This document shows positions 30,832 to 41,106 of a stretch of 45,713 nt of DNA, in pieces. Each line of letters begins with the position of its first letter. The first letter of the stretch is position 1. The notes under the pieces are model-generated. The model saw only the letters and a list, made by a program, of their open reading frames with translations, ran no database searches and was not told where the DNA came from. The position numbers and the translations under genes were made by a program. Where the stretch lies: positions 1-45,713 of the IMG/VR virus record IMGVR_UViG_3300006917_000045; one strand, written 5' to 3'. Origin of the DNA: a virus.

Positions 30832-33161
30832 TGCATCATCCCTCCGGGTACGACCTCGACGCCCTCTGCCCTGCCATCGGCACCACGAATGATCCTTCGC
30901 GGCGCGCCCATGGACTGCATGAGGGACTGGATCATCTGCATCATGCGCTGGTCGCGGGCAGCGTTCTGGGCGTCCATCTGCTGGATCATGTAGCGCACAT
31001 CCTCGCCCATTTGCTGTGCAACAGGCTTGACCGCTTCGATCTCGGGAACATCAGCACCGGCAGCACCAATGCGCGCCACCATGATCTTCGTGTCAGCCTC
31101 CATCTTGGCCTTCTGGGCCTCCATGGACTGCTTGGCGGCAAGCTCCTGCTGGACGCGCACGTTCTCGTACTCTTGCTTCATGCGCGCGATCTCGGCCTCG
31201 TTCTGGATCCGCATCTCCTGCAACATCCGCTCGTTTTCGATGCGAAGCTGCTGAAGCTGCTGGTCCCCGACCATCTGCGCCTGCTTCATCTGCTGATCGA
31301 CTTGCATCTTCTGCGCTTCGATCTGCAACTGCTGCTGCGCCGACTGCGCCTCTAGCTGGAGCTTCTGCTGCTCGACCTGGACCTTCGCCTGCTCAGCCAT
31401 GGCCTTCGGATCCGGCGCAGGCTCCGGTAGTTGATCCACAGATCGCGGAAGAATGCTGTCAATCCCGTCAATTTCCATCTCCTCTAGCAGCCTCCTCGAC
31501 ACCGCGAGCAGGACTTCAGGGTTGTTGGCGACAAGGGGGTTCTTCGTGGCGAAGTCGAACAGGAACTGGGCCTTCTGGAGGCGACTCTGCTGGTTCATCA
31601 TGCGGGGATCAGCCACGGGCATGATGAGCATGTCGTCCATGAAGTCCTGATCGCTGACCACCATCTCCTCCGGCCCCTCCGGGCTGACCGAGATGAAGCT
31701 CTCGATTCCACGGAAGTAGATCCCGTGGAGGCGATAGATCTTGTTCAGTTCCTTCGACCAAGAGTGCAGCAGGAACTCCTGCACCGAGGTGAACATCACC
31801 AGCGACTGCTCGACCATCGTCTGCATGGTCGTGGGCTGGAAGACCTTGTTGATGTCGCCCGCAGCGGCGTCCGTGGTCGCGCCGATGCGCTGGGCGCGCG
31901 TCTCAAGCTGGGCAATGGCCTGCATGAGGGTGGGCGGCGGGGCGGGGAAGGACAACGTCTTGATGCCCTTCTGGATGTCGTCCGTGCTGGCCGAGACCGT
32001 CTTCAGGCTGCCGAGTTCGATCTTCACCGGCCCCTTGCTGATGTTCAGGGCCTCCGAGATGAACCCGCTCATGTTGCCGTGGATCGACAGCGTGGTCGCG
32101 TCGATGAACTGGCGCAGGAGCTTGTTGACCGCAATGTTCGTCTTGCCCAGCAGGAAGCCAAGCCCGTAGCCGTAGAAGCCGTCCGGGTTCACAAGGAAGC
32201 GGTAGTGCGTGTATTCCTCGATGGGCAGGCGACCGTTGAGCGGACGCCCGGTCTGGTCAACCTCGTACCGCACTTCGATGCGGAGCAGCTTCTCGGAGGT
32301 AACGTCGATCCAGATCTTGTACGGCTCCGCGATCCCGTCCCCGTCAAGGTCGAGATGGCAATGCTGTTCGATGATCTGGGCCATGTCCTCGCTCTGCGTG
32401 GCAGAGGCGTGGATGCCGTTGTCCCTGTCGTTCTGCTCCTGGATGGGCGACGACAACTGCCCGATCATCATCGGCTCGGGCGGGGATAGGAAGTAGCCCT
32501 CCGAGGCGCGGATGCGGCCCTCGTTGAGGTTGATGTGAATCAACTCGGTCTTTCGATGTACATCCTCGATGTTGATCGGCCCGATGTGGTACGGGACGTA
32601 GAGGTCTTCGGCGCGGACGGCGCGGGTGACGATCTTGTTCATCACCGGGTCGAAGTACGTCTTCGTGAAGTCCGACCCATGCACCGCGACCCGCAGCAGC
32701 ATGGCCGACTTGTCCTCCTTGTAGGTCTGGTCCTTGAAGAACAGGGACCATTGGAGGAACTGGCTGACCCGCTTGGCACGCTCGGAAGAACCCGGCACGG
32801 AGGGGTTGGTCGAGATCGCGGCGACCGGCATCCGGCTCGCGAAGAATGCCTTGTAGGCGCGGCTCTGGAAGCTGTTGCAAGCCTCCGTCAGCAGGCCAAG
32901 GCTCTCGTCCGAGGAGTTGGGCCACGGGCGGTTGATCGGCGCGTCCTGCTGGTTGTAGACCGCAACCCAGTCGGCATGCATGGCATCCCATTCCGACCGG
33001 CTCTCCATGTCCGACCTGAAGTCCTCAAGGCAGACCTGGGCGATGGACTCGCGTTCCTGCTCGGAGAGACTGTCCGCAATGTTGACGAGGAGCGCATTGA
33101 GGGCCTGCCGCTTCTTGCGCCGGATCTTCTCGTTGTCCCCTCGCCACTTGCGGTCGTTCAT
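30828..33161 (-). CDS. Portal protein (P22-like)
   Basis: Twelve-subunit DNA channel of the head. At 777 residues it has the P22-type portal length. It opens KIRRKKRQALNALLVNIADS, has a conserved core (NQQDAPINRPWPNSSDESLG; DLYVPYHIGPINIEDVHRKT; YGYGLGFLLGKTNIAVNKLL) and a long Gln/Glu/Lys-rich coiled coil at about 590-720 (VEQQKLQLEAQSAQQQLQIE). That coil could form a barrel like P22's C-terminal one. Codons overlap both neighbours. Unusually, a sugar/methyl-transfer cluster, not terminase, lies directly upstream. Confidence 0.9.
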   Translation of the reverse strand: MNDRKWRGDNEKIRRKKRQALNALLVNIADSLSEQERESIAQVCLEDFRSDMESRSEWDAMHADWVAVYNQQDAPINRPWPNSSDESLGLLTEACNSFQSRAYKAFFASRMPVAAISTNPSVPGSSERAKRVSQFLQWSLFFKDQTYKEDKSAMLLRVAVHGSDFTKTYFDPVMNKIVTRAVRAEDLYVPYHIGPINIEDVHRKTELIHINLNEGRIRASEGYFLSPPEPMMIGQLSSPIQEQNDRDNGIHASATQSEDMAQIIEQHCHLDLDGDGIAEPYKIWIDVTSEKLLRIEVRYEVDQTGRPLNGRLPIEEYTHYRFLVNPDGFYGYGLGFLLGKTNIAVNKLLRQFIDATTLSIHGNMSGFISEALNISKGPVKIELGSLKTVSASTDDIQKGIKTLSFPAPPPTLMQAIAQLETRAQRIGATTDAAAGDINKVFQPTTMQTMVEQSLVMFTSVQEFLLHSWSKELNKIYRLHGIYFRGIESFISVSPEGPEEMVVSDQDFMDDMLIMPVADPRMMNQQSRLQKAQFLFDFATKNPLVANNPEVLLAVSRRLLEEMEIDGIDSILPRSVDQLPEPAPDPKAMAEQAKVQVEQQKLQLEAQSAQQQLQIEAQKMQVDQQMKQAQMVGDQQLQQLRIENERMLQEMRIQNEAEIARMKQEYENVRVQQELAAKQSMEAQKAKMEADTKIMVARIGAAGADVPEIEAVKPVAQQMGEDVRYMIQQMDAQNAARDQRMMQMIQSLMQSMGAPRRIIRGADGRAEGVEVVPGGMMQ

Positions 33162-35131
33162 CCGTAGGTCTCCTCAAGTCTCGGCAAGTTGCCGCGCGTG
33201 TTCTCCCACAACCACGCAACCATGCCGGGACCGTGGGCGTCCCATTGAATCCACGGGCTTTCCTGCAAGAACCTTGTGAAGTCCTGCGCCTGACAAAGGA
33301 TGTCCCTGTCGGTCCAGAACCTCTTGTTCCTGCCTCCAGCAGCCATGTCCATCAGGATGTATTTGGGTGTGCCATCCTGGTGGCGCGCGTCCTTGTCCAG
33401 CTTGCTCTCGTCAAGGTGACAGGAGTCGAAGCCGTAGAGGCCGATGGACTGGAAGCCCATGAATTGCCATGCAAGTATCATAGCGCGACCGGCAGAAGAA
33501 GACCCACCCCCCATCAGGAACTTCTGATGCTCGGGTGGGAGGACGGACTTCTCGTCCGCGCCCACCGCTGCATGCCAGCCATAGACCTTGCCGCCCGTGT
33601 CCATGAGGCGCTTCACCGTAGAAGGGTCCACCATGGAGGCGCAGAAGTAGCGCACCCCAGGATAGGCTGCCGGGAGAAGCTCGGCGCGGGGCTTGCCATG
33701 GGTGCTGATGCCCTCATGGGGGCGTGGGTCGAGGAGGACGCACCCCCACGGCACCAGCCCGGCTGCGATCAGCTTGTTGTGGCTGTGCTTGACGCAGAAG
33801 AGGATTGATCCGTTCTCCACTTCCTTGCGTATGGCATCCATGGTCTCGGGGAGGTCAAGGGACGGCCCGGCAGAGACGATGACAGCCCGCCTCATGTGGT
33901 GGCGGCTGTAGCGCACCCACTCCGGGATCTGGGCAAGGTTCGCCACGATGTTGGCGCGGATGGTCTCCTCCGGGACGCAGTTCTGCGTCTGTACCAGCAT
34001 GTTGGTCTGGTAGGAGTTGTTGGTGATGGCCTTGATCTGCTCCTTCTTGGCTTGAGCCATCTGCCGCACATGGAACACCGGAAGGTCGTCCGGGATGTCC
34101 TTCCAGTCCTTCGTCACGGCGACATGGACGAACCCCAGCCCATCCACCGCCCGCTCGACCGACTCAAAGGCAATCGTGTCCGTCCGCACGGCATTGATGC
34201 CATAGAGCGAGGTGTCAACGTGCTTGCCGTCCTCGTCGGAGGAGTAAAAGCCGATGAATATCAACGGCTTGTCCTCTACCGCCAGCAGCGCCCGGCGGAT
34301 GTCCTCGACCGACACGTTGTCGCAGTTGATGACCGGCACAGCGTCCTCCGGCACCTCGCCGTCGAAATCGCGGGGATTGATTCGGACATGGGGGCGACCG
34401 GCGAGCAGCCGCTCCACGATCTCCGCATTGGTCATCCCTAACTTGCGGTTGCCCTTCTTGTGGACGAAGACCCCATCCAGGTACGACGCCTCGAAAGCGT
34501 CCAGACCATACGGACCAAGCCCGGTACTGCAAAGATCGTGCCAGTTGCTCTTCTCCTGCTCCATGTGGGCGATGACGCAGACCATGAAGACGTAGCTGTC
34601 GTGCAGTTCGGACAGCTTCAGGACATCGTCCTTGAGGTACATCCCAACGAACTTCCGCAGGAAGTCCCCGCCCTTGAGCTTGAGGTTGAAGGCCATGAAC
34701 CCGCACTCGGGATGCGGGGCGCTCTGGGCGCGGGAGAGGAGGACGCCGTCGTGGTCGTCAAGGAGGATTACGTCGAGGAAGGATTCCGTGATCGGGGCCT
34801 TGGTCTCCACATCGCCGTCCAGCCAGACAAGCCAGTCGAACCCATCCTCCTCTGCCTCCTGAAGGGCGATCTTCAGCGCGAAGACCTTGTGGGCAAACCG
34901 CAGCAGATCCTGGCGGTAGTCATAGCCCGGCTGGGAGGGGTCAAGGCGGCGCGCGGCGTGGCGCTCCATGAACCCCCGGAAGCCGAAGTCCATGGCGAGC
35001 TTGTCGTCCGTGATGACGTTCGGCTCCAGCAGATCTCCCCAATATTGCTTGGCCGTCTCCAGCCAGCGCCTGCCGTAGAGTTCCTCGCCAGCGGGGGACC
35101 AACTGCTGGCGACCATGACCTTGCGCTTCAT
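33158..35131 (-). CDS. Two-domain glycosyltransferase: GT-A domain plus MptE/Maf-like domain
   Basis: Residues 1-235 look like a GT-A nucleotide-sugar transferase with a metal-binding D-x-D (FDWLVWLDGDVETKAPIT; Asp105, Asp107) and a partner region (YVFMVCVIAHMEQEKSNWHD). Residues about 410-620 match the MptE-like/DUF115 domain of Maf-type proteins: RRAVIVSAGPSLDLPETMDA, FCVKHSHNKLIAAGLVPWGC, VLLDPRPHE, FLMGGGSSSAGRAM. A middle segment (about 255-360) is unassigned. At 657 residues it is a large fusion. Likely it transfers a sugar to virion proteins or host-surface glycan. It is coupled to portal and to the FkbM gene by ATGA overlaps. Confidence 0.75.
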   Translation of the reverse strand: MKRKVMVASSWSPAGEELYGRRWLETAKQYWGDLLEPNVITDDKLAMDFGFRGFMERHAARRLDPSQPGYDYRQDLLRFAHKVFALKIALQEAEEDGFDWLVWLDGDVETKAPITESFLDVILLDDHDGVLLSRAQSAPHPECGFMAFNLKLKGGDFLRKFVGMYLKDDVLKLSELHDSYVFMVCVIAHMEQEKSNWHDLCSTGLGPYGLDAFEASYLDGVFVHKKGNRKLGMTNAEIVERLLAGRPHVRINPRDFDGEVPEDAVPVINCDNVSVEDIRRALLAVEDKPLIFIGFYSSDEDGKHVDTSLYGINAVRTDTIAFESVERAVDGLGFVHVAVTKDWKDIPDDLPVFHVRQMAQAKKEQIKAITNNSYQTNMLVQTQNCVPEETIRANIVANLAQIPEWVRYSRHHMRRAVIVSAGPSLDLPETMDAIRKEVENGSILFCVKHSHNKLIAAGLVPWGCVLLDPRPHEGISTHGKPRAELLPAAYPGVRYFCASMVDPSTVKRLMDTGGKVYGWHAAVGADEKSVLPPEHQKFLMGGGSSSAGRAMILAWQFMGFQSIGLYGFDSCHLDESKLDKDARHQDGTPKYILMDMAAGGRNKRFWTDRDILCQAQDFTRFLQESPWIQWDAHGPGMVAWLWENTRGNLPRLEETYG

Positions 35132-35754
35132 TGGGACTTCTCCACGAAGATGCTGTCCTTGTTCACGACATCGACCAGCTTGTAGTTGAGCAGCCGAAGG
35201 ACGTTAATCGAGTCCTCCTTGGGGCGTTCGATGATGAGGACCGGCTTGTGCTGCTTGAGGGTCTCCATGGCCCCGACAAGCACACGATGCTCGAAACCCT
35301 CCGTGTCGATCTTCACCAGACCAAGGAGTGTGTATTTGAACTCATCTATGGCGTACATCGGCACTCGACCGGCGTTGTCCACTTCAAAGCCTCTCGCTCC
35401 CGTATTGGCAAGAGCGTCCACGCGCACGGAGCCAACCCCCCGCTGCGCTCCAGCGGCACCGTAGATCGGGATCACGGATTGCAACTTGCGTTCGCCCTGC
35501 TGTACGCCAAGACCCTGCGTATTGCGGACAAGGCACGGGTAGTTGGCCGAGTCGGGCTCAAAGGCGAACACCGTGTCGAACTGCGCGGCCATGCGAGCGG
35601 AGTAGATGCCCACATGCGCGCCGACATCAATGGCCGTGCCGACCTTCTTCACATGCTTCATGGCGGACTGATACGCAGCCATCTGGTACTGGCTGAGATC
35701 ACCGACAAAGTGGTGGTCCGTTTCCGGCAGCCACCAGTCTCCAACCTTCTTCAC
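35128..35754 (-). CDS. FkbM-family methyltransferase
   Basis: S-adenosylmethionine-dependent O-methyltransferase, commonly acting on sugars. Motif I is AIDVGAHVGIYS (residues 41-52), then FAFEPD (63-68) and the FkbM signature LVKIDTEGFEHRVLVGA (146-162), followed by KPVLIIERP. The GTG at 35754 is chosen because GGGGAGGTTC precedes it and it overlaps the upstream stop. The longer frame would lie inside the neighbouring gene. It sits between two glycosyltransferase-like genes, so methylation of a transferred sugar is inferred. Confidence 0.85.
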   Translation of the reverse strand: MKKVGDWWLPETDHHFVGDLSQYQMAAYQSAMKHVKKVGTAIDVGAHVGIYSARMAAQFDTVFAFEPDSANYPCLVRNTQGLGVQQGERKLQSVIPIYGAAGAQRGVGSVRVDALANTGARGFEVDNAGRVPMYAIDEFKYTLLGLVKIDTEGFEHRVLVGAMETLKQHKPVLIIERPKEDSINVLRLLNYKLVDVVNKDSIFVEKSQ

Positions 35755-36494
35755 TCGAACCTCCCCTTGGTCTTCATCATGTGGTCGTACTCGTTCGTCC
35801 ACCATCCGCCGAATGGAACGTCGCGCAGATGCTCGAACCATGGCCCGCCATCGGTGAAGTGCATGGCGCGCGGCTTCACCGTGTGCTTGGTGTGTCCGAC
35901 GAGGAAGTTCCATCCTGGCGACAGGTCACCGATCTCATGGTCACGCAGCCACGCAAAGGTGTGCAGTTCCTTGCCGGGGATCGTGTTGACGTAGCTCGGC
36001 GTGAGGTACTTGTTGGCCGGGTGGGAGCAGTTGAACAGGATCACGGAGGACCAGTTCTTGCGCGGGTACTGCTGCTGGACCTGACCGTCCATCTTGATGT
36101 CGTTCTGCGGGATGTGGTTCTGCTTCACCACTTGCACCGCAAACTTGTCGTCCCGCTCGGCATACAGGCCAGCGATGTCGTCCAGCCAGAGGATGTCGCA
36201 GTCGGTGAACAGCGCCCAGCCTTGGTAGTTCTGGAGCGCGGGGACGAGGAAGCGAGTGAATGCGAACTCCGTCGAGAAGGGACGCCCGTCAAGGACATCG
36301 AACATCTGCCCGGTCTTCGGGTTCACGCCCCATTCGCGAGAGAATATGCCACGCGCGCGCAGTTGCTTGTGATTGAGCGCACGGACATGAAGCGGAATGC
36401 TGCTCTTGCGCTGGGCAGAGAACGAGCAGACATCGAACGCATCCACCTCGCGAGCGTCGAAACCTATCCAATACGGAAGCGGGTCAACGTCCAT
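35751..36494 (-). CDS. Glycosyltransferase-like protein (GT-A, DxD type)
   Basis: Begins WIGFDAREVDAFDVCSFSAQ with STEFAFTRFLVPALQNYQGW and ALFTDCDILWLDD, a metal-binding D-x-D at residues 98-100. Then NWSSVILFNCSHPANKYLTP, GDLSPGWNFLVGHT and HFTDGGPWFEHL. These are features of a GT-A family found in phages and alphaproteobacteria. At 247 residues it is a single domain. The ATG at 36494 follows GGAGGCGAGG. Codon overlaps on both sides tie it to the two methyltransferases. Confidence 0.75.
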   Translation of the reverse strand: MDVDPLPYWIGFDAREVDAFDVCSFSAQRKSSIPLHVRALNHKQLRARGIFSREWGVNPKTGQMFDVLDGRPFSTEFAFTRFLVPALQNYQGWALFTDCDILWLDDIAGLYAERDDKFAVQVVKQNHIPQNDIKMDGQVQQQYPRKNWSSVILFNCSHPANKYLTPSYVNTIPGKELHTFAWLRDHEIGDLSPGWNFLVGHTKHTVKPRAMHFTDGGPWFEHLRDVPFGGWWTNEYDHMMKTKGRFE

Positions 36495-37002
36495 CCTCGC
36501 CTCCGTCGAACTCGACCCGGACGAGCGCATCCCCCTGGAATCGCACATCCGTGATGAAGCGCATCCACACATCCCGCGACCAGAGCGTCAGGTGTGCGTT
36601 GCGACCATCTGGCAGCGTCTTCTTGGCGGGGAAGGTCGCGATGCCGAAGAAGCAATGCTTGCGCGCGCGGATCGTGGCGTTGAACACCGCCTGGCGAAGT
36701 TCCTCTCCCTCAAGATGCTCCAGCACATCGCAGCAGATGACCATGTCGAACGGCAACATGATGTTGGGGATCTTGTCCAAGCCCGGCACGGCAGGATCGT
36801 AGAGCGTAGGCATCTCCACGCCCCATTTCTCATGCAGCTTGAGTTCCGTGTATTGCATCCCCTTGCCGCTGCCGAAGTCGAGGATGGTCTTGATGTTGAA
36901 CTCCGTGATGATCTTCGCGATCTGGTCGCTCCACTTCTCGGTGGAGTGGCCGGGGAACTTCCCCTCGGCGTGCATCTGCTTGTAGAACGCGAGGTTGCTC
37001 AT
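36484..37002 (-). CDS. Class I SAM-dependent methyltransferase
   Basis: Small methyltransferase of 172 residues with motif I IKTILDFGSGKGMQY (about 37-51) and motif IV/post-I MVICCDVLEHLEGEELRQAV. No target-recognition domain for DNA and no DPPY-type motif, so a small molecule or sugar is more likely than DNA. AAGGAGGAAGCA precedes the ATG. It overlaps the next gene by 11 bases. Confidence 0.82.
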   Translation of the reverse strand: MSNLAFYKQMHAEGKFPGHSTEKWSDQIAKIITEFNIKTILDFGSGKGMQYTELKLHEKWGVEMPTLYDPAVPGLDKIPNIMLPFDMVICCDVLEHLEGEELRQAVFNATIRARKHCFFGIATFPAKKTLPDGRNAHLTLWSRDVWMRFITDVRFQGDALVRVEFDGGEDGR

Positions 37003-37294: not shown

Positions 37295-37624
37295 TCACTT
37301 GACCAGCCTCTCGAAAGTGGACCACTTCATGTAGACGCGCGGCTCGTTCTCGGGCTTGAACGGCTCCGGGTCGATCCGCACGACGAGGATGTCGGCACTT
37401 CCGATCCATCGCTCCCCGGTAGCCCACGCATCCTTCTTGCGCTGCTTGGCTTCAACTAGGACGCGCTTGCCGTCCTTGAGGACTGCCTCGACATCGTGGG
37501 GGAATGCGTCAAACGCGCCCGATCCCGGCTGCCGACGAGCGGTCAAGCCGAGTGACTCGAACTGCTTGACGATCCATTGCTCCAGCTTCCGGCCCTTGGC
37601 CTTCGCGGACTTCGCCTTGATCAC
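37295..37624 (-). CDS. Hjc-like PD-(D/E)XK nuclease (109 aa)
   Basis: Opens KAKGRKLEQWIVKQFESLGL with RRQPGSGAFDAFPHDVEAVL and VLVEAKQRKKDAW, i.e. an acidic residue, a G-SG motif, Asp and an E-x-K. This fits small resolvase/VRR-like nucleases. SADILVVRID follows. At 109 residues it is minimal. The start is GTG with GGAGAG upstream, overlapping the previous stop (GTGA). It may trim branched DNA before packaging. Flanked by a regulator and a glycosyltransferase-like gene. Confidence 0.68.
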   Translation of the reverse strand: MIKAKSAKAKGRKLEQWIVKQFESLGLTARRQPGSGAFDAFPHDVEAVLKDGKRVLVEAKQRKKDAWATGERWIGSADILVVRIDPEPFKPENEPRVYMKWSTFERLVK

Positions 37625-38431: not shown

Positions 38432-38776
38432 TCACCTATACGCCCCGAGAAGGCTGAACTTCCCCGTCATGGAGATGGAAACGTCCTCGTAGCGCCGGTT
38501 GCCCATGCGCCGCGCGAAGATGCGGTCCATTTCCTCGTTCGTCATGCTGGGAGTTGGCTCATCAGGCTCTGCCGTGACGTAGATCGCCACGAAGGTCTTG
38601 TTCTCGGTCCTGCCTCCGACACGACGGATGAGATCGCGCGACTTCATGAAGTTCAGGACGTAGGAAACCCGCGCCACGGTCGCGCCGGGGATCATCTTGG
38701 CTATGTCGTGGACCGTCCATTCACCATCCATGGACCGCACGACTTGCCGGATTGCTTCGGTTGTCTCGCCCGCCAT
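38432..38776 (-). CDS. Winged-helix-like hypothetical protein (114 aa)
   Basis: N-terminal winged-helix pattern (TTEAIRQVVRSMDGEWTVHD then IAKMIPGATVARVSYVLNFM and KSRDLIRRVGG). The C-terminus carries NEEMDRIFARRMGNRR. Possibly a DNA-binding factor. The start at 38776 overlaps the terminase stop (TGATG), with AGGAGGGCG upstream. Confidence 0.62.
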   Translation of the reverse strand: MAGETTEAIRQVVRSMDGEWTVHDIAKMIPGATVARVSYVLNFMKSRDLIRRVGGRTENKTFVAIYVTAEPDEPTPSMTNEEMDRIFARRMGNRRYEDVSISMTGKFSLLGAYR

Positions 38777-41106
38777 CACGCCCTCCTGCGTCTGACTGCG
38801 TAGGGATCGGATACCACGCCCCCAAGTTCGCGGGCAAGTTCCATCAACTCGTCGTTGACCCGGTCCTTCTCGGTGGTCACCCGAGAGTGGGCGCTCAGGG
38901 CGAAGCCAACTTCGTCATAGCAGTTATGCACGATCAGACCCCTTGTCCCTATCGTGAACACCGGGACCCGTGCCACCGACAGGTTGAACACGGCTGACCG
39001 ACCTTCGATGGGAGAAATACCCAGGATTGCGGCGTCGCCAATTGCGCTGTTGGCAGAGGCGCGTGCACATGCGCGCGTTGCGATGCTTTGAAAGGAACTC
39101 CTTGCCGCACTCTTCGCACTTGCAACCAAACCGGGCTTGGAGCTGTCCGTTGGCCTTGCCGCGCTCCGAATGCCACTTGCGGCCCTCTTCGCTAGCGTGC
39201 CAATCGCGCGCAGCCAACTGAGCGGCTGCAATGGCTTTCTGGAGATGTGCCGCCCTTGAGGGGTGTCGCATGTGTCGGGAGAGGTGCTCGCCTCCGGGCA
39301 CGCACTCAAGGTTGGAGATGTCGTTGTTGGACCTGTCTCCGTCGATGTGGTGCACATGGTGCCCCTTCGGAATGGGGCCGTGATGATGCTCCCACACCAC
39401 GCGATGAAGTCGCTTGCCGCGACGCTGCCAATAGTGGCCGCAAAGCCAATACGCCTTGCCAAGGAAATGCTGCGGTTCAGACATTCAGGATCATCCTCCG
39501 AGTTGGTGGACATGATCCTATCACCAATACGCAGTTCGTCAATGGTACGCCACCCACGACGAGTGAGAATTTTGTGCGACGAAGTGGCCCGGAACGAACC
39601 TCCGTCGTGGATGACTTCAACTACCTCTTCCAGACCCGTGCAGCCGGAACGAAGAACTTGTTGCCAGCCAAGTGGCGTCCACACTCGGTCCCCCGGCACG
39701 ATGTCTTCGATTGGCACAAGTCCGTTAGATTTGGTCTGGACCAGCGTCCCGGCTACAAAGCAATGGTCCTCCTGCCTCCGAGTGGCCGGTCCCTTGTCGG
39801 GTTCAAGCTCGTCCAGCGTCAGGCCGGGGCAAGTGCGCCAGAAATGCTGGCAGTTCTTGGTCACGAAGAACATCGGGTGGTACGCCCCGTCATTGGCCTG
39901 CTCGCCAACGAGATGCTCCACGATGGTCGTGTAGTTGGCCTTCCGATCTCGCCGCCCCTGACGGAGGATGAAGCGCCCTCCGGTGGCGGTCCGCATGTTG
40001 TCTTGTGGGGAGGGACCATCCTGGCTTGCCCACATCTGCGGGTCGGCCACGCGGATGTCCACGGGCGGTAGCTCCATCTCATGCTCAAGGCGCAGGATCT
40101 CCCGCGCCACGGCCCCAGCAGACATCCTAGCCCCCATGTCCGCCTCGCCGTTCCAGCCATACCACTCGGCAAAGCGGATCTTCGCGCCCGGAGGAAGGTA
40201 GACATCCGGGAACCCGTCCTTGGCCTTCAGAGTTGCTCCCTCTGATATGCAGTACCATCCAACGGAGAAGGGTTTGGCTGTGCCCCAGTCCATAGCCATG
40301 AGATGGGTCCAATGTCGTGGGGGCTTGAAGCTCCGTACCATGTGCCGGGATCTGTCGAGCATGGATAGGGCTGCTCCCGAAACCACATCCCAGTCGCCGT
40401 CCCGTAGTGCCTTGGCCCGCTCGGGGGAGAGGGCGGTGAATGATCCTTCATAGCTGTCCACATCCAGGTGCGGGTTGTCGTCCATCTTCGCGGGGATGTA
40501 GATGCTCCTCCAGCCCGGCGAGTTCTTGGTCTTGGTCGTCTTGTCGTGGAAGAAGTGCATCGGCGGGGCTTGTTCGATGAAGATGTCCCGCAGGAGGTTG
40601 TGCGCCGGGCCTCCGGGATTGCTGCCGATGACAATGCGCGGAAATACCTCCTCCTGAGCCGCCTTGTAGCGCCCAAGGCGCACTCGGGTGCGTAGGAACT
40701 TCAACTGATCGGGGAGGAAGAGCGCCCCCTCGTCAATGCCCAGCCAATGCATCTCCGCGCCCTGGTACTTGAAGATGTCGGCCAAGTCCTCGGCAAAGCA
40801 GAACTGGAGGAAGGCGTCGTTGTAGAACGTCAGCTTCCGGTCAGTTTCCTTCCAAATCGCCACCTCGGGGGGGATCGCCATCTGCTGGATGGGGATGAGG
40901 TGGTTGTCCTTGAGTTCCGGGTAGGTCCGCCGAAAGAGATACGCCTGCAAGCCGGGGTTCTGCAGGCAGGAGATGATCCCATCCATGCGGATCGCATGGC
41001 TCTTCCCGCCCCCCGCCGCGCCTCCGTAGAGAACTTGCCTAGCCTTGACCGCGTGGAAGATCCTCTGCTTCTCGCTCGGCTGGTAGCCCAATGACCATTG
41101 CGCCAT
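38776..41106 (-). CDS. terL: Terminase large subunit interrupted by an intein
   Basis: DNA-packaging motor. ATPase: Walker A LYGGAAGGGKS (residues 26-36), Walker B HWLGIDEG (120-127) and coupling motif IGSNPGGP. Nuclease: DWG (Asp273), ADPQMW (Asp355) and the last acid in EDH/YDEVGF. The open frame is 776 residues. Residues 449-728 are an intein inserted between EDH and CYDEVGF, leaving a 496-residue mature enzyme, a normal TerL length. The start ATG lies inside the end of the small-subunit gene (68-base overlap). Splicing should be needed to rebuild the nuclease site. Confidence 0.93.
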   Translation of the reverse strand: MAQWSLGYQPSEKQRIFHAVKARQVLYGGAAGGGKSHAIRMDGIISCLQNPGLQAYLFRRTYPELKDNHLIPIQQMAIPPEVAIWKETDRKLTFYNDAFLQFCFAEDLADIFKYQGAEMHWLGIDEGALFLPDQLKFLRTRVRLGRYKAAQEEVFPRIVIGSNPGGPAHNLLRDIFIEQAPPMHFFHDKTTKTKNSPGWRSIYIPAKMDDNPHLDVDSYEGSFTALSPERAKALRDGDWDVVSGAALSMLDRSRHMVRSFKPPRHWTHLMAMDWGTAKPFSVGWYCISEGATLKAKDGFPDVYLPPGAKIRFAEWYGWNGEADMGARMSAGAVAREILRLEHEMELPPVDIRVADPQMWASQDGPSPQDNMRTATGGRFILRQGRRDRKANYTTIVEHLVGEQANDGAYHPMFFVTKNCQHFWRTCPGLTLDELEPDKGPATRRQEDHCFVAGTLVQTKSNGLVPIEDIVPGDRVWTPLGWQQVLRSGCTGLEEVVEVIHDGGSFRATSSHKILTRRGWRTIDELRIGDRIMSTNSEDDPECLNRSISLARRIGFAATIGSVAASDFIAWCGSIITAPFRRGTMCTTSTETGPTTTSPTLSACPEASTSPDTCDTPQGRHISRKPLQPLSWLRAIGTLAKRAASGIRSAARPTDSSKPGLVASAKSAARSSFQSIATRACARASANSAIGDAAILGISPIEGRSAVFNLSVARVPVFTIGTRGLIVHNCYDEVGFALSAHSRVTTEKDRVNDELMELARELGGVVSDPYAVRRRRA
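38923..39762 (-). other. Intein (280 residues) in the terminase nuclease motif
   Basis: Block A: CFVAGTLVQT with Cys1. Next come VPIEDIVPGDRVWTP and VEVIHDGGSFRATSSHKILT, with the T-x-x-H of block B, then WRTIDELRIGDRIMST. The C-terminal blocks are AVFNLSVARVPVFTIG (F) and GLIVHN followed by Cys+1 (G). All splicing residues are present: Cys1, block-B His, penultimate His, terminal Asn, extein Cys. Between block B and F about 170 residues are Ser/Thr/Ala/Arg-rich and domain-free. They are the out-of-frame reading of the HNH gene. Confidence 0.92.
38924..39484 (-). CDS. HNH homing endonuclease encoded out of frame inside the intein
   Basis: A 186-residue frame nested in the intein in another phase. 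HNH core: RLHRVVWEHHHGPIPKGHHV then HHIDGDRSNNDISNLECVPG, with GEHLSRH. A Cys4-type finger follows (CKCEECGKEFLSKHRNARMC). A TGA in this phase touches its ATG, so it cannot be entered from far upstream by simple readthrough. GGAGG lies 10 bases before the ATG. Its stop TAA overlaps the intein's terminal His-Asn codons. The last 25 or so residues are the shadow of block F. Likely cleaves intein-free terminase genes. Confidence 0.8.
   Translation of the reverse strand: MSEPQHFLGKAYWLCGHYWQRRGKRLHRVVWEHHHGPIPKGHHVHHIDGDRSNNDISNLECVPGGEHLSRHMRHPSRAAHLQKAIAAAQLAARDWHASEEGRKWHSERGKANGQLQARFGCKCEECGKEFLSKHRNARMCTRLCQQRNWRRRNPGYFSHRRSVSRVQPVGGTGPGVHDRDKGSDRA

What the first reader, a model, noticed from the sequence alone, without database searches (positions are those of the whole stretch)
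38924..39484. HNH homing endonuclease encoded out of frame inside an intein
Inteins usually carry their endonuclease in frame between the splicing halves. Here the intein frame stays open through the whole insert while a different phase encodes an HNH protein. That ORF has its own ATG directly preceded by a stop in its phase and a GGAGG 10 bases upstream. Its TAA overlaps the intein's last Asn codon. The in-frame intein segment across it is domain-free, Ser/Thr/Ala/Arg-rich linker. Either this is a nested selfish gene with its own expression, or an in-frame intein that suffered paired frameshifts and survived.
Basis: partly seen in the sequence, partly recalled or inferred. Interest (0 to 1): 0.92.

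Follow-up and report, generated by a model that had tools for sequence, protein, structure and literature searches.

The report
Homing gene hidden inside an intein
A phage DNA-packaging gene carries a self-splicing protein insert (an intein) whose DNA also encodes, in a second reading frame, a complete HNH DNA-cutting enzyme with its own start signal, and this two-in-one layout recurs in dozens of unrelated viruses, including one archaeal one, rather than being a sequencing accident.

Summary
The terminase large subunit (terL, 38776-41106 minus) holds a 280-residue class-1-type intein. A 186-residue HNH_3 protein lies inside it in another phase (38924-39484), with its own GGAGG and ATG. Relatives exclude error, recent paired frameshift and decay. 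A divergent terL intein (L002) keeps the same overlap, phase and ribosome-binding site. Between the two, substitutions fall on HNH third codon positions (38/28/80), and the HNH (70% identical) is better conserved than the intein linker it overlaps (44%). Surveys found 37 non-redundant terL inteins, plus one in a Hymenobacter MAG and one on a haloarchaeal plasmid, all with the HNH in the identical phase. Near-identical phages lack the insert, and the insert carries a short co-converted tract with the +1 Cys. AlphaFold gives a confident Hint fold around a disordered overlap. Two cultured-phage lineages show a split derivative: terL in two pieces with an HNH or its remnant between the intein halves, same phase. 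Free-standing cousins sit beside terL. Best reading: a mobile composite in which the intein hides the insertion and an internally initiated HNH drives homing. Splicing, cutting and expression are inferred. Closest published precedent: the ShiLan out-of-frame HNH, which has no splicing domain.

The parts
38776..41106 (-). terL, terminase large subunit with intein, 776 aa precursor
   Evidence: PHROG terminase large subunit E=1e-32
39763..41106 (-). N-extein (terL residues 1-448), ends ...RRQEDH
   Evidence: aligns without gap to intein-less terL
38923..39762 (-). Intein, 280 aa: C1 ... T60SSH63 ... H279-N280, then +1 Cys
   Evidence: (C1, T60, H63, N280 invariant in 28-31 relatives)
39508..39762 (-). 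N-terminal splicing half (intein residues 1-85), Hint fold
   Evidence: AlphaFold block pLDDT 93-98 over residues 1-80, 77 over 81-90; Foldseek DnaB and RecA inteins
39495..39499 (-). Shine-Dalgarno GGAGG for the HNH, 10 nt before its ATG
   Evidence: SD of 5 nt or more at 19/37 relatives vs 2.6% of internal terL ATGs
38924..39484 (-). HNH endonuclease ORF, 186 aa, own ATG and TAA, out of frame with the intein
   Evidence: conserved in phase in L002 and others
39293..39412 (-). HNH_3 catalytic domain (HNH residues 25-64)
   Evidence: Pfam PF13392 E=7e-20; H27, H46, N54, H67 invariant in A3
39053..39118 (-). Zinc-finger-like Cys cluster of the HNH (C123, C126, C140, C144)
   Evidence: C123 invariant, C126/C140/C144 nearly so
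38923..39042 (-). C-terminal splicing half (intein residues 241-280)
   Evidence: AlphaFold pLDDT 89-97; conserved ..GLIVHN^C
38779..38922 (-). C-extein, begins C-YDEVGFAL
38911..38922 (-). Probable co-converted tract TGCTATGACGAA (adds the +1 Cys; empty alleles read GTTTACGACGAG, Val)
   Evidence: Identical to intein-bearing L002, different from 96%-identical empty alleles L003/L020/L026

Best explanation
It is a composite mobile element: a self-splicing terL intein in whose endonuclease-insertion loop sits a complete HNH homing-endonuclease gene in another reading frame. Ribosomes reading terL pass through the overlap in the intein frame and make a precursor with a disordered loop; the Hint halves fold and splice out, restoring the terminase nuclease region (inferred from motifs, fold and invariant residues). 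Separately, ribosomes start at the internal Shine-Dalgarno and ATG and make the HNH protein (inferred from sequence and selection). The HNH is presumed to cut intein-less terL of a co-infecting relative at the insertion site, so that repair copies in the whole element with a short flank that supplies the +1 Cys (inferred from empty alleles and the co-converted tract). Selection acts on the HNH frame, on the two intein ends and on the mere openness of the loop. The layout probably arose when a terL-adjacent free-standing HNH gene entered a mini-intein, and its breakdown by a stop in the loop yields split terL inteins.
For: Exact anatomy. Same phase, ATG and AGGAGG in divergent L002. Substitutions at HNH positions 1/2/3 = 38/28/80; HNH 70%, linker 44%, Hint halves about 50%; all 20 tested pairs agree, e.g. 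L123-L124 HNH 0.87, Hint 0.90, linker 0.62. 53 of 59 loci with a strong match to the HNH family, 37 non-redundant, have it inside a 550-1100 aa open frame in one phase, never the other; nearly all hosts match terminase families; 30/31 inteins match Pfam Intein_splicing and all 39 aligned HNHs match HNH_3. In a sample fetched by terL similarity, every intein for which both splicing halves were found carried the nested HNH. Start signals: SD of 5 nt or more at 19/37 vs 2.6% of 741 internal ATGs. The HNH starts a median 88 residues into the intein. Intein AlphaFold model: Hint halves pLDDT about 90-98, overlap mostly under 50, matching DnaB/RecA mini-inteins. Empty alleles at 96% nt identity plus the co-converted +1 Cys. 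Archaeal plasmid case. Split derivatives in the same phase.
Against: No experiment shows splicing, HNH translation, DNA cleavage or homing. About half of the relatives lack a strong SD (some may have Bacteroidetes-type leaders), and three lack a nearby ATG. The HNH model matched no solved structure at E<=0.001; I-HmuI was best at 0.16. The 'embedded' set was defined by an open neighbour frame, so its zero stops are partly by definition. The invasion direction is inferred; the HNH tree mixes embedded and free forms.
Confidence: 0.87

Rival explanations
1. The HNH frame is out of phase because of sequencing error or a recent paired frameshift in a canonical in-frame HNH intein.
For: Canonical inteins carry the endonuclease in frame, and in-frame HNH_3 inteins exist (cyanophage CL131 dCTP deaminase, PMC6293099).
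Against: An independent contig has the same sequence with one difference in the intein; a divergent relative and dozens of others show the same phase. No in-frame HNH of this family was found in the loci examined.
Confidence: 0.01
2. The HNH reaches the ribosome by programmed -1 frameshifting from the intein frame, giving an N-intein-HNH fusion, not by internal initiation.
For: The phase is the -1 frame in every case; three relatives lack a nearby ATG; the HNH frame of L080 has no stop back to the intein start.
Against: In the window a TGA abuts the ATG in the HNH frame, so a shift would have to happen at the start codon itself; 19/31 have a stop within 10 codons upstream; SD plus ATG are strongly enriched.
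Confidence: 0.05
3. The HNH is a packaging accessory like HK97 gp74 that happens to overlap terL, not a homing endonuclease.
For: HNH proteins beside terminase genes can act in packaging (Kala et al. 2014, cited in PMC12613952); free-standing cousins sit next to terL.
Against: Phages about 96% identical over the aligned region lack the insert altogether, so this copy is dispensable in that group; a co-converted flank is a homing mark; nesting in an intein is expected for a homing nuclease.
Confidence: 0.06
4. The HNH is a fossil kept open only because GC-rich DNA has few stops and the intein frame must stay open.
For: The intein frame over the HNH would be open by chance in 15-35% of recodings in this phase for the window and L002.
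Against: It is the HNH frame that shows third-position bias and higher identity; catalytic and Cys residues are invariant or nearly so; AT-rich relatives keep it too.
Confidence: 0.01

Closest known systems
[quoted passage not shown]
   Same: Hidden HNH with zinc fingers in an alternative frame of an insertion that stays open in the host frame; the host-frame insert mostly ends in Asn with the HNH TAA overlapping it; GTG at base 18 implies the same relative phase; patchy distribution.
   Different: The authors found no intein splicing domain and no RBS, and predict the insert stays in the methylase. Here the insert is a full Hint intein in terL, many relatives have an SD, and the layout spans many virus groups.
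Canonical large inteins with in-frame endonuclease, e.g. mycobacteriophage TerL inteins (PMC5050341) and CL131 dCTP deaminase HNH_3 intein (PMC6293099)
   Same: Hint splicing fold, endonuclease placed between the two splicing halves, terL as host, presence/absence among relatives.
   Different: Their endonuclease is part of the intein polypeptide; mycobacteriophage TerL inteins lie in the ATPase domain. Here the endonuclease is a separate overlapping gene and the sites mostly lie in the C-terminal nuclease region.
Fractured genes: split inteins with a free-standing homing endonuclease between the halves (Dassa et al. 2009, not held, known by citation and memory)
   Same: Vibrio phages 1.238/1.245 and Brochothrix BL3 terL have this form with an HNH or its remnant between the halves.
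   Different: In the window terL is contiguous and the HNH overlaps an open intein frame; it looks like the step before splitting.
Collaborative homing of free-standing endonucleases with introns (psbA cyanophage case, cited in PMC3229294 and PMC10448857)
   Same: A separate endonuclease gene mobilises a splicing element that lacks its own.
   Different: Here the endonuclease gene lies inside the splicing element, in another frame, and the element is an intein.
I-HmuI (PDB 1u3e), HNH homing endonuclease of a group I intron
   Same: Best solved-structure relative by profile (E=0.006) and by fold.
   Different: Weak match; intron-borne and different DNA-binding modules.

Membership tests
Class 1 intein | Catalytic Cys1, block B TxxH, C-terminal His-Asn, Cys/Ser/Thr +1 | tested here: met
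   C1, T60SSH63, H279-N280, C+1; C1, T60, H63, N280 invariant in the alignments
Class 1 intein | Hint fold | tested here: met
   AlphaFold pLDDT about 90-98 in both halves, Foldseek E=8e-8 to DnaB mini-intein; Hint_2 above Pfam cut-off
Class 1 intein | Self-splicing activity | not testable with these tools
   No experiment; inferred from invariant residues
Canonical homing-endonuclease intein | Endonuclease encoded in frame with the splicing domain | tested here: not met
   HNH is in a different phase in the window and in all relatives examined
HNH homing endonuclease (HNH_3) | HNH_3 domain with conserved catalytic residues | tested here: met
   PF13392 E=7e-20; H27, H46, N54, H67 invariant
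HNH homing endonuclease (HNH_3) | Cuts the empty site and promotes its own insertion | not testable with these tools
   Indirect only: empty alleles at about 96% identity and a co-converted +1 Cys tract
ShiLan-type element | Out-of-frame HNH in an open insertion | tested here: met
   compare
ShiLan-type element | No splicing domain in the host frame | tested here: not met
   Hint domain present
Fractured gene / split intein | Intein halves on separate polypeptides | tested here: not met
   Window terL is one open frame; met in relatives L157, L158, L164
Group I intron with HNH ORF | Recognisable intron RNA | tested here: not met
   No Rfam match at gathering threshold in the whole window; insertion is open in the host frame

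The most novel reading that the evidence does not exclude
Out-of-frame nested endonucleases are a widespread, long-lived way for viral terL inteins to be mobile, in viruses of bacteria and archaea, fixed in one phase because only that phase of the HNH gene is poor in stops. They are the missing intermediate between contiguous inteins and split inteins with a separate endonuclease gene: a stop in the loop of a nested intein directly yields the split form seen in Vibrio and Brochothrix phages.
Probability: 0.6. Interest if true: 0.88.

Novelty: new variant of a known kind. Interest (0 to 1): 0.82.

Why it matters
Intein endonucleases are normally described as domains of the intein polypeptide. 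Here the endonuclease is an overlapping gene, so the splicing protein and the mobility enzyme are separate products of one DNA stretch, each with its own dosage. It exposes a class of homing genes that annotation hides: in Tetrasphaera phage TJE1, Acinetobacter phage Highwayman and Rhodobacteraceae phage LS06-2018-MD07 only terL is annotated there. It offers a natural two-frame overlap to study, and a testable route from contiguous to split inteins, whose origin is an open question. It also adds naturally loop-tolerant and split inteins of possible use as tools. Novelty is limited by the ShiLan precedent and by an intein survey preprint that I could not read.

Tried and rejected
Sequencing error or recent paired frameshift (rejected). 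Chance open frame or decayed HNH (rejected by codon positions). Group I/II or other known RNA intron: no Rfam match in the window. Programmed frameshift: unlikely in the window because TGA abuts the HNH ATG. Plus-strand ORFs over the intein (39247-40071, 39263-39934) treated as GC-rich spurious frames. A single seven-member HNH alignment was too diverse for the pattern search, so single proteins were used. One of these was a hand-made consensus-like query; its hits were confirmed by tblastn and re-scored with an HMM. A genome-contig scan gave only two loci, one nested in a terL intein and one not. Dassa et al. 2009 is not held. Tree of HNHs: embedded and free forms interleave, so one versus several captures cannot be decided.

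Full report
WHAT IS THERE. The window is a virus record. On its minus strand, 38776-41106, lies one 776-codon frame for a terminase large subunit, terL. Residues 449-728 form a 280-residue intein. It begins with Cys, has TSSH at 60-63, ends His-Asn, and is followed by Cys. Inside it, in the phase where HNH codon position 3 is intein codon position 2, is a 186-codon ORF (38924-39484). Pfam reads it as HNH_3 (E=7e-20); the terL frame matches Hint_2 (E=4e-8). The ATG follows TGA directly, GGAGG lies 10 nt upstream, and TAA overlaps the intein's last Asn codon.

IS IT MORE THAN CHANCE? Open frames alone are not evidence in 62% GC DNA: the window has 121 ORFs of at least 120 aa. With the HNH protein held fixed and codons redrawn by phage usage, the intein frame stays open in 35% of cases in this phase, and in 0.3% in the other phase. 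The evidence is the two domain matches and, above all, conservation.

CLOSE RELATIVES. A scan of IMG/VR with terL gave the same phage from another contig (L001, two terL differences, one of them in the intein) and a divergent terL (L002) with an 825-nt intein. L002 has the same overlap, the same phase, its own ATG and an AGGAGG. Over 153 HNH core codons the substitutions by HNH position 1, 2, 3 are 38, 28, 80. The HNH is 70% identical there, the intein linker it overlaps 44%, and the intein ends 50-53%. So the HNH frame is under protein-level selection, the intein ends are conserved, and the loop between them is only kept open.

EMPTY SITES. L003, L020 and L026 are about 96% identical in nucleotides on both sides and lack the insert. 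It sits exactly after CAT. Just downstream the window reads TGCTATGACGAA, as does L002, while the empty alleles read GTTTACGACGAG. This 12-nt tract changes Val to the Cys that splicing needs at +1. A short flank carried along with the insert is what homing by break repair leaves.

DISTANT RELATIVES. Inteins at the corresponding terL site in far more distant contigs (L034, L037, L040, L047, L055) all show an HNH in the same phase. In the terL-based sample, every intein for which profiles found both splicing halves had the nested HNH (10 loci). An HMM of the HNH family over 154 loci gave 59 strong matches. In 53 the neighbouring frame is open for 550-1100 aa; in 6 it is not; the other phase was never open. 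These are 37 non-redundant cases with GC from 0.34 to 0.69. Caution: 'embedded' was defined by an open neighbour frame, so zero stops is partly by definition. What is independent is that nearly all these frames carry a Cys start and an Asn-Cys/Ser/Thr end (remaining cases read by eye), that 30 of 31 inteins match Pfam Intein_splicing, and that the hosts match terminase families. Free-standing relatives show as many stops as synonymous redrawing predicts, whereas embedded ones would be expected to hold about 0.7-4 each. These counts are not phylogenetically independent.

The layout is also in annotated phages: Tetrasphaera phage TJE1 (L080), Acinetobacter phage Highwayman (L081), Rhodobacteraceae phage LS06-2018-MD07 (L082), where only terL is annotated, and an unannotated gut phage (L084). 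It occurs in a terL of a Hymenobacter MAG (L155) and on a Halobacterium plasmid with phage-like genes (L167), the last two again in the same phase.

EXPRESSION. The HNH starts a median 88 residues into the intein, after block B, where other inteins hold their endonuclease. An SD match of 5 nt or more precedes the HNH start in 19 of 37 against 2.6% of 741 internal terL ATGs (26/37 against 16% at 4 nt or more). Three cases have no nearby ATG. Frameshifting from the intein frame is unlikely in the window because TGA abuts the ATG, but is not excluded in L040 or L080.

STRUCTURE. AlphaFold of the intein with 28 sequences: residues 1-80 and 241-280 at about 89-98 pLDDT, residues 100-240 mostly below 50. 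Foldseek matches DnaB and RecA mini-inteins (E from 8e-8); the profile hits DnaB, DnaX and gp41-1 inteins. The HNH model has mean pLDDT 88.5 with a disordered tail over the intein's C half; its best solved relative is I-HmuI, weakly. The tail is probably passive read-through, as the position of the HNH stop varies from 1 to 94 nt before the intein end.

EVOLUTION. In 20 pairs at 51-87% HNH identity, HNH position 3 always changes most, and the loop is less conserved than the HNH and than the Hint parts. HNH, intein and terL distances correlate (Mantel r 0.57-0.68, p=2e-4), so the parts have largely travelled together. Free-standing cousins sit between terL and the portal gene or beside terL in phages PAE1, SN1, CL2, vB_EauM-23, FBPa53, Shemara and Poludnitsa, on a Fructilactobacillus plasmid, and upstream of terS in BP10. 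In Vibrio phages 1.238.A and 1.245.O, terL plus the N-intein ends at a stop, an HNH ORF follows, and the C-intein with the C-extein is a separate ORF; the halves share a frame and the HNH is in the usual phase. Brochothrix phage BL3 has the same split with only the HNH's zinc-finger end left, again in phase. The simplest series is: free HNH beside terL, nested in a terL intein, split intein with HNH between, HNH lost. The HNH tree mixes free and embedded forms (at least two changes), so direction and number of captures are not settled.

COMPARISON WITH WHAT IS KNOWN. The nearest published case is the ShiLan domain, an out-of-frame HNH in a phage methylase insertion. Its GTG at base 18 and TAAC end imply the same relative phase, but the authors found no splicing domain and propose leaderless initiation. 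Mycobacteriophage TerL inteins lie in the ATPase domain. An in-frame HNH_3 intein that splices is known in cyanophage CL131. Split inteins with a separate endonuclease are the 'fractured genes' of Dassa et al. 2009, which I could not read. The ShiLan authors cite a preprint on actinobacteriophage inteins with 'non-canonical architecture' (10.1101/2025.01.02.630785); it is not held, and it may describe related overlaps. I found no paper in the library describing a separate endonuclease gene out of frame inside a splicing-competent-looking intein.

VERDICT. The finding is real and general. Shown: the overlap, its fixed phase, selection on the HNH frame, conservation of splicing residues, empty alleles, split derivatives. 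Inferred: splicing, HNH translation from the internal start, cleavage, homing, and the order of events.

Noticed in passing
L157 2201-2878 and 2832-3149; L158 same coordinates (Vibrio phages 1.238.A, 1.245.O): terL is split into two ORFs with N- and C-intein halves and an HNH ORF between, in the same phase as the nested form; annotated as 'terminase large subunit' and 'hedgehog/hint domain protein'. Likely natural split intein.
   Followed up: partly
L164 666-2240, 2250-2546 (Brochothrix phage BL3 gp2/gp3): Split terL intein with only the zinc-finger end of the HNH left between the halves.
   Followed up: partly
[quoted passage not shown]
   Followed up: partly
L167 846-3158 (Halobacterium sp. 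GSL-19 plasmid pGSL19_54.9): Archaeal terL-like 'Hint domain-containing protein' with the nested HNH in the same phase; another HNH gene lies upstream (1-240).
   Followed up: partly
L085 4584-5501 (Escherichia phage Ec1-ASingh): The head-protein-like ORF downstream of the portal gene appears to hold another Hint/intein start (CFTAETELAP...) running off the fetched stretch.
   Followed up: no
Window 37295-37624 (-): 109-aa ORF (RKLEQWIVKQFESLGLTARRQPGSGAFDAFPHDVEAVLKDGKRVLVEAKQRKK) that by eye resembles a small resolvase/VRR-NUC-type nuclease near terL.
   Followed up: no
Window 33158-37002 (-): Cluster of methyltransferase- and glycosyltransferase-like ORFs between the portal-like gene and terL, unusual for the packaging module; by eye only.
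   Followed up: no
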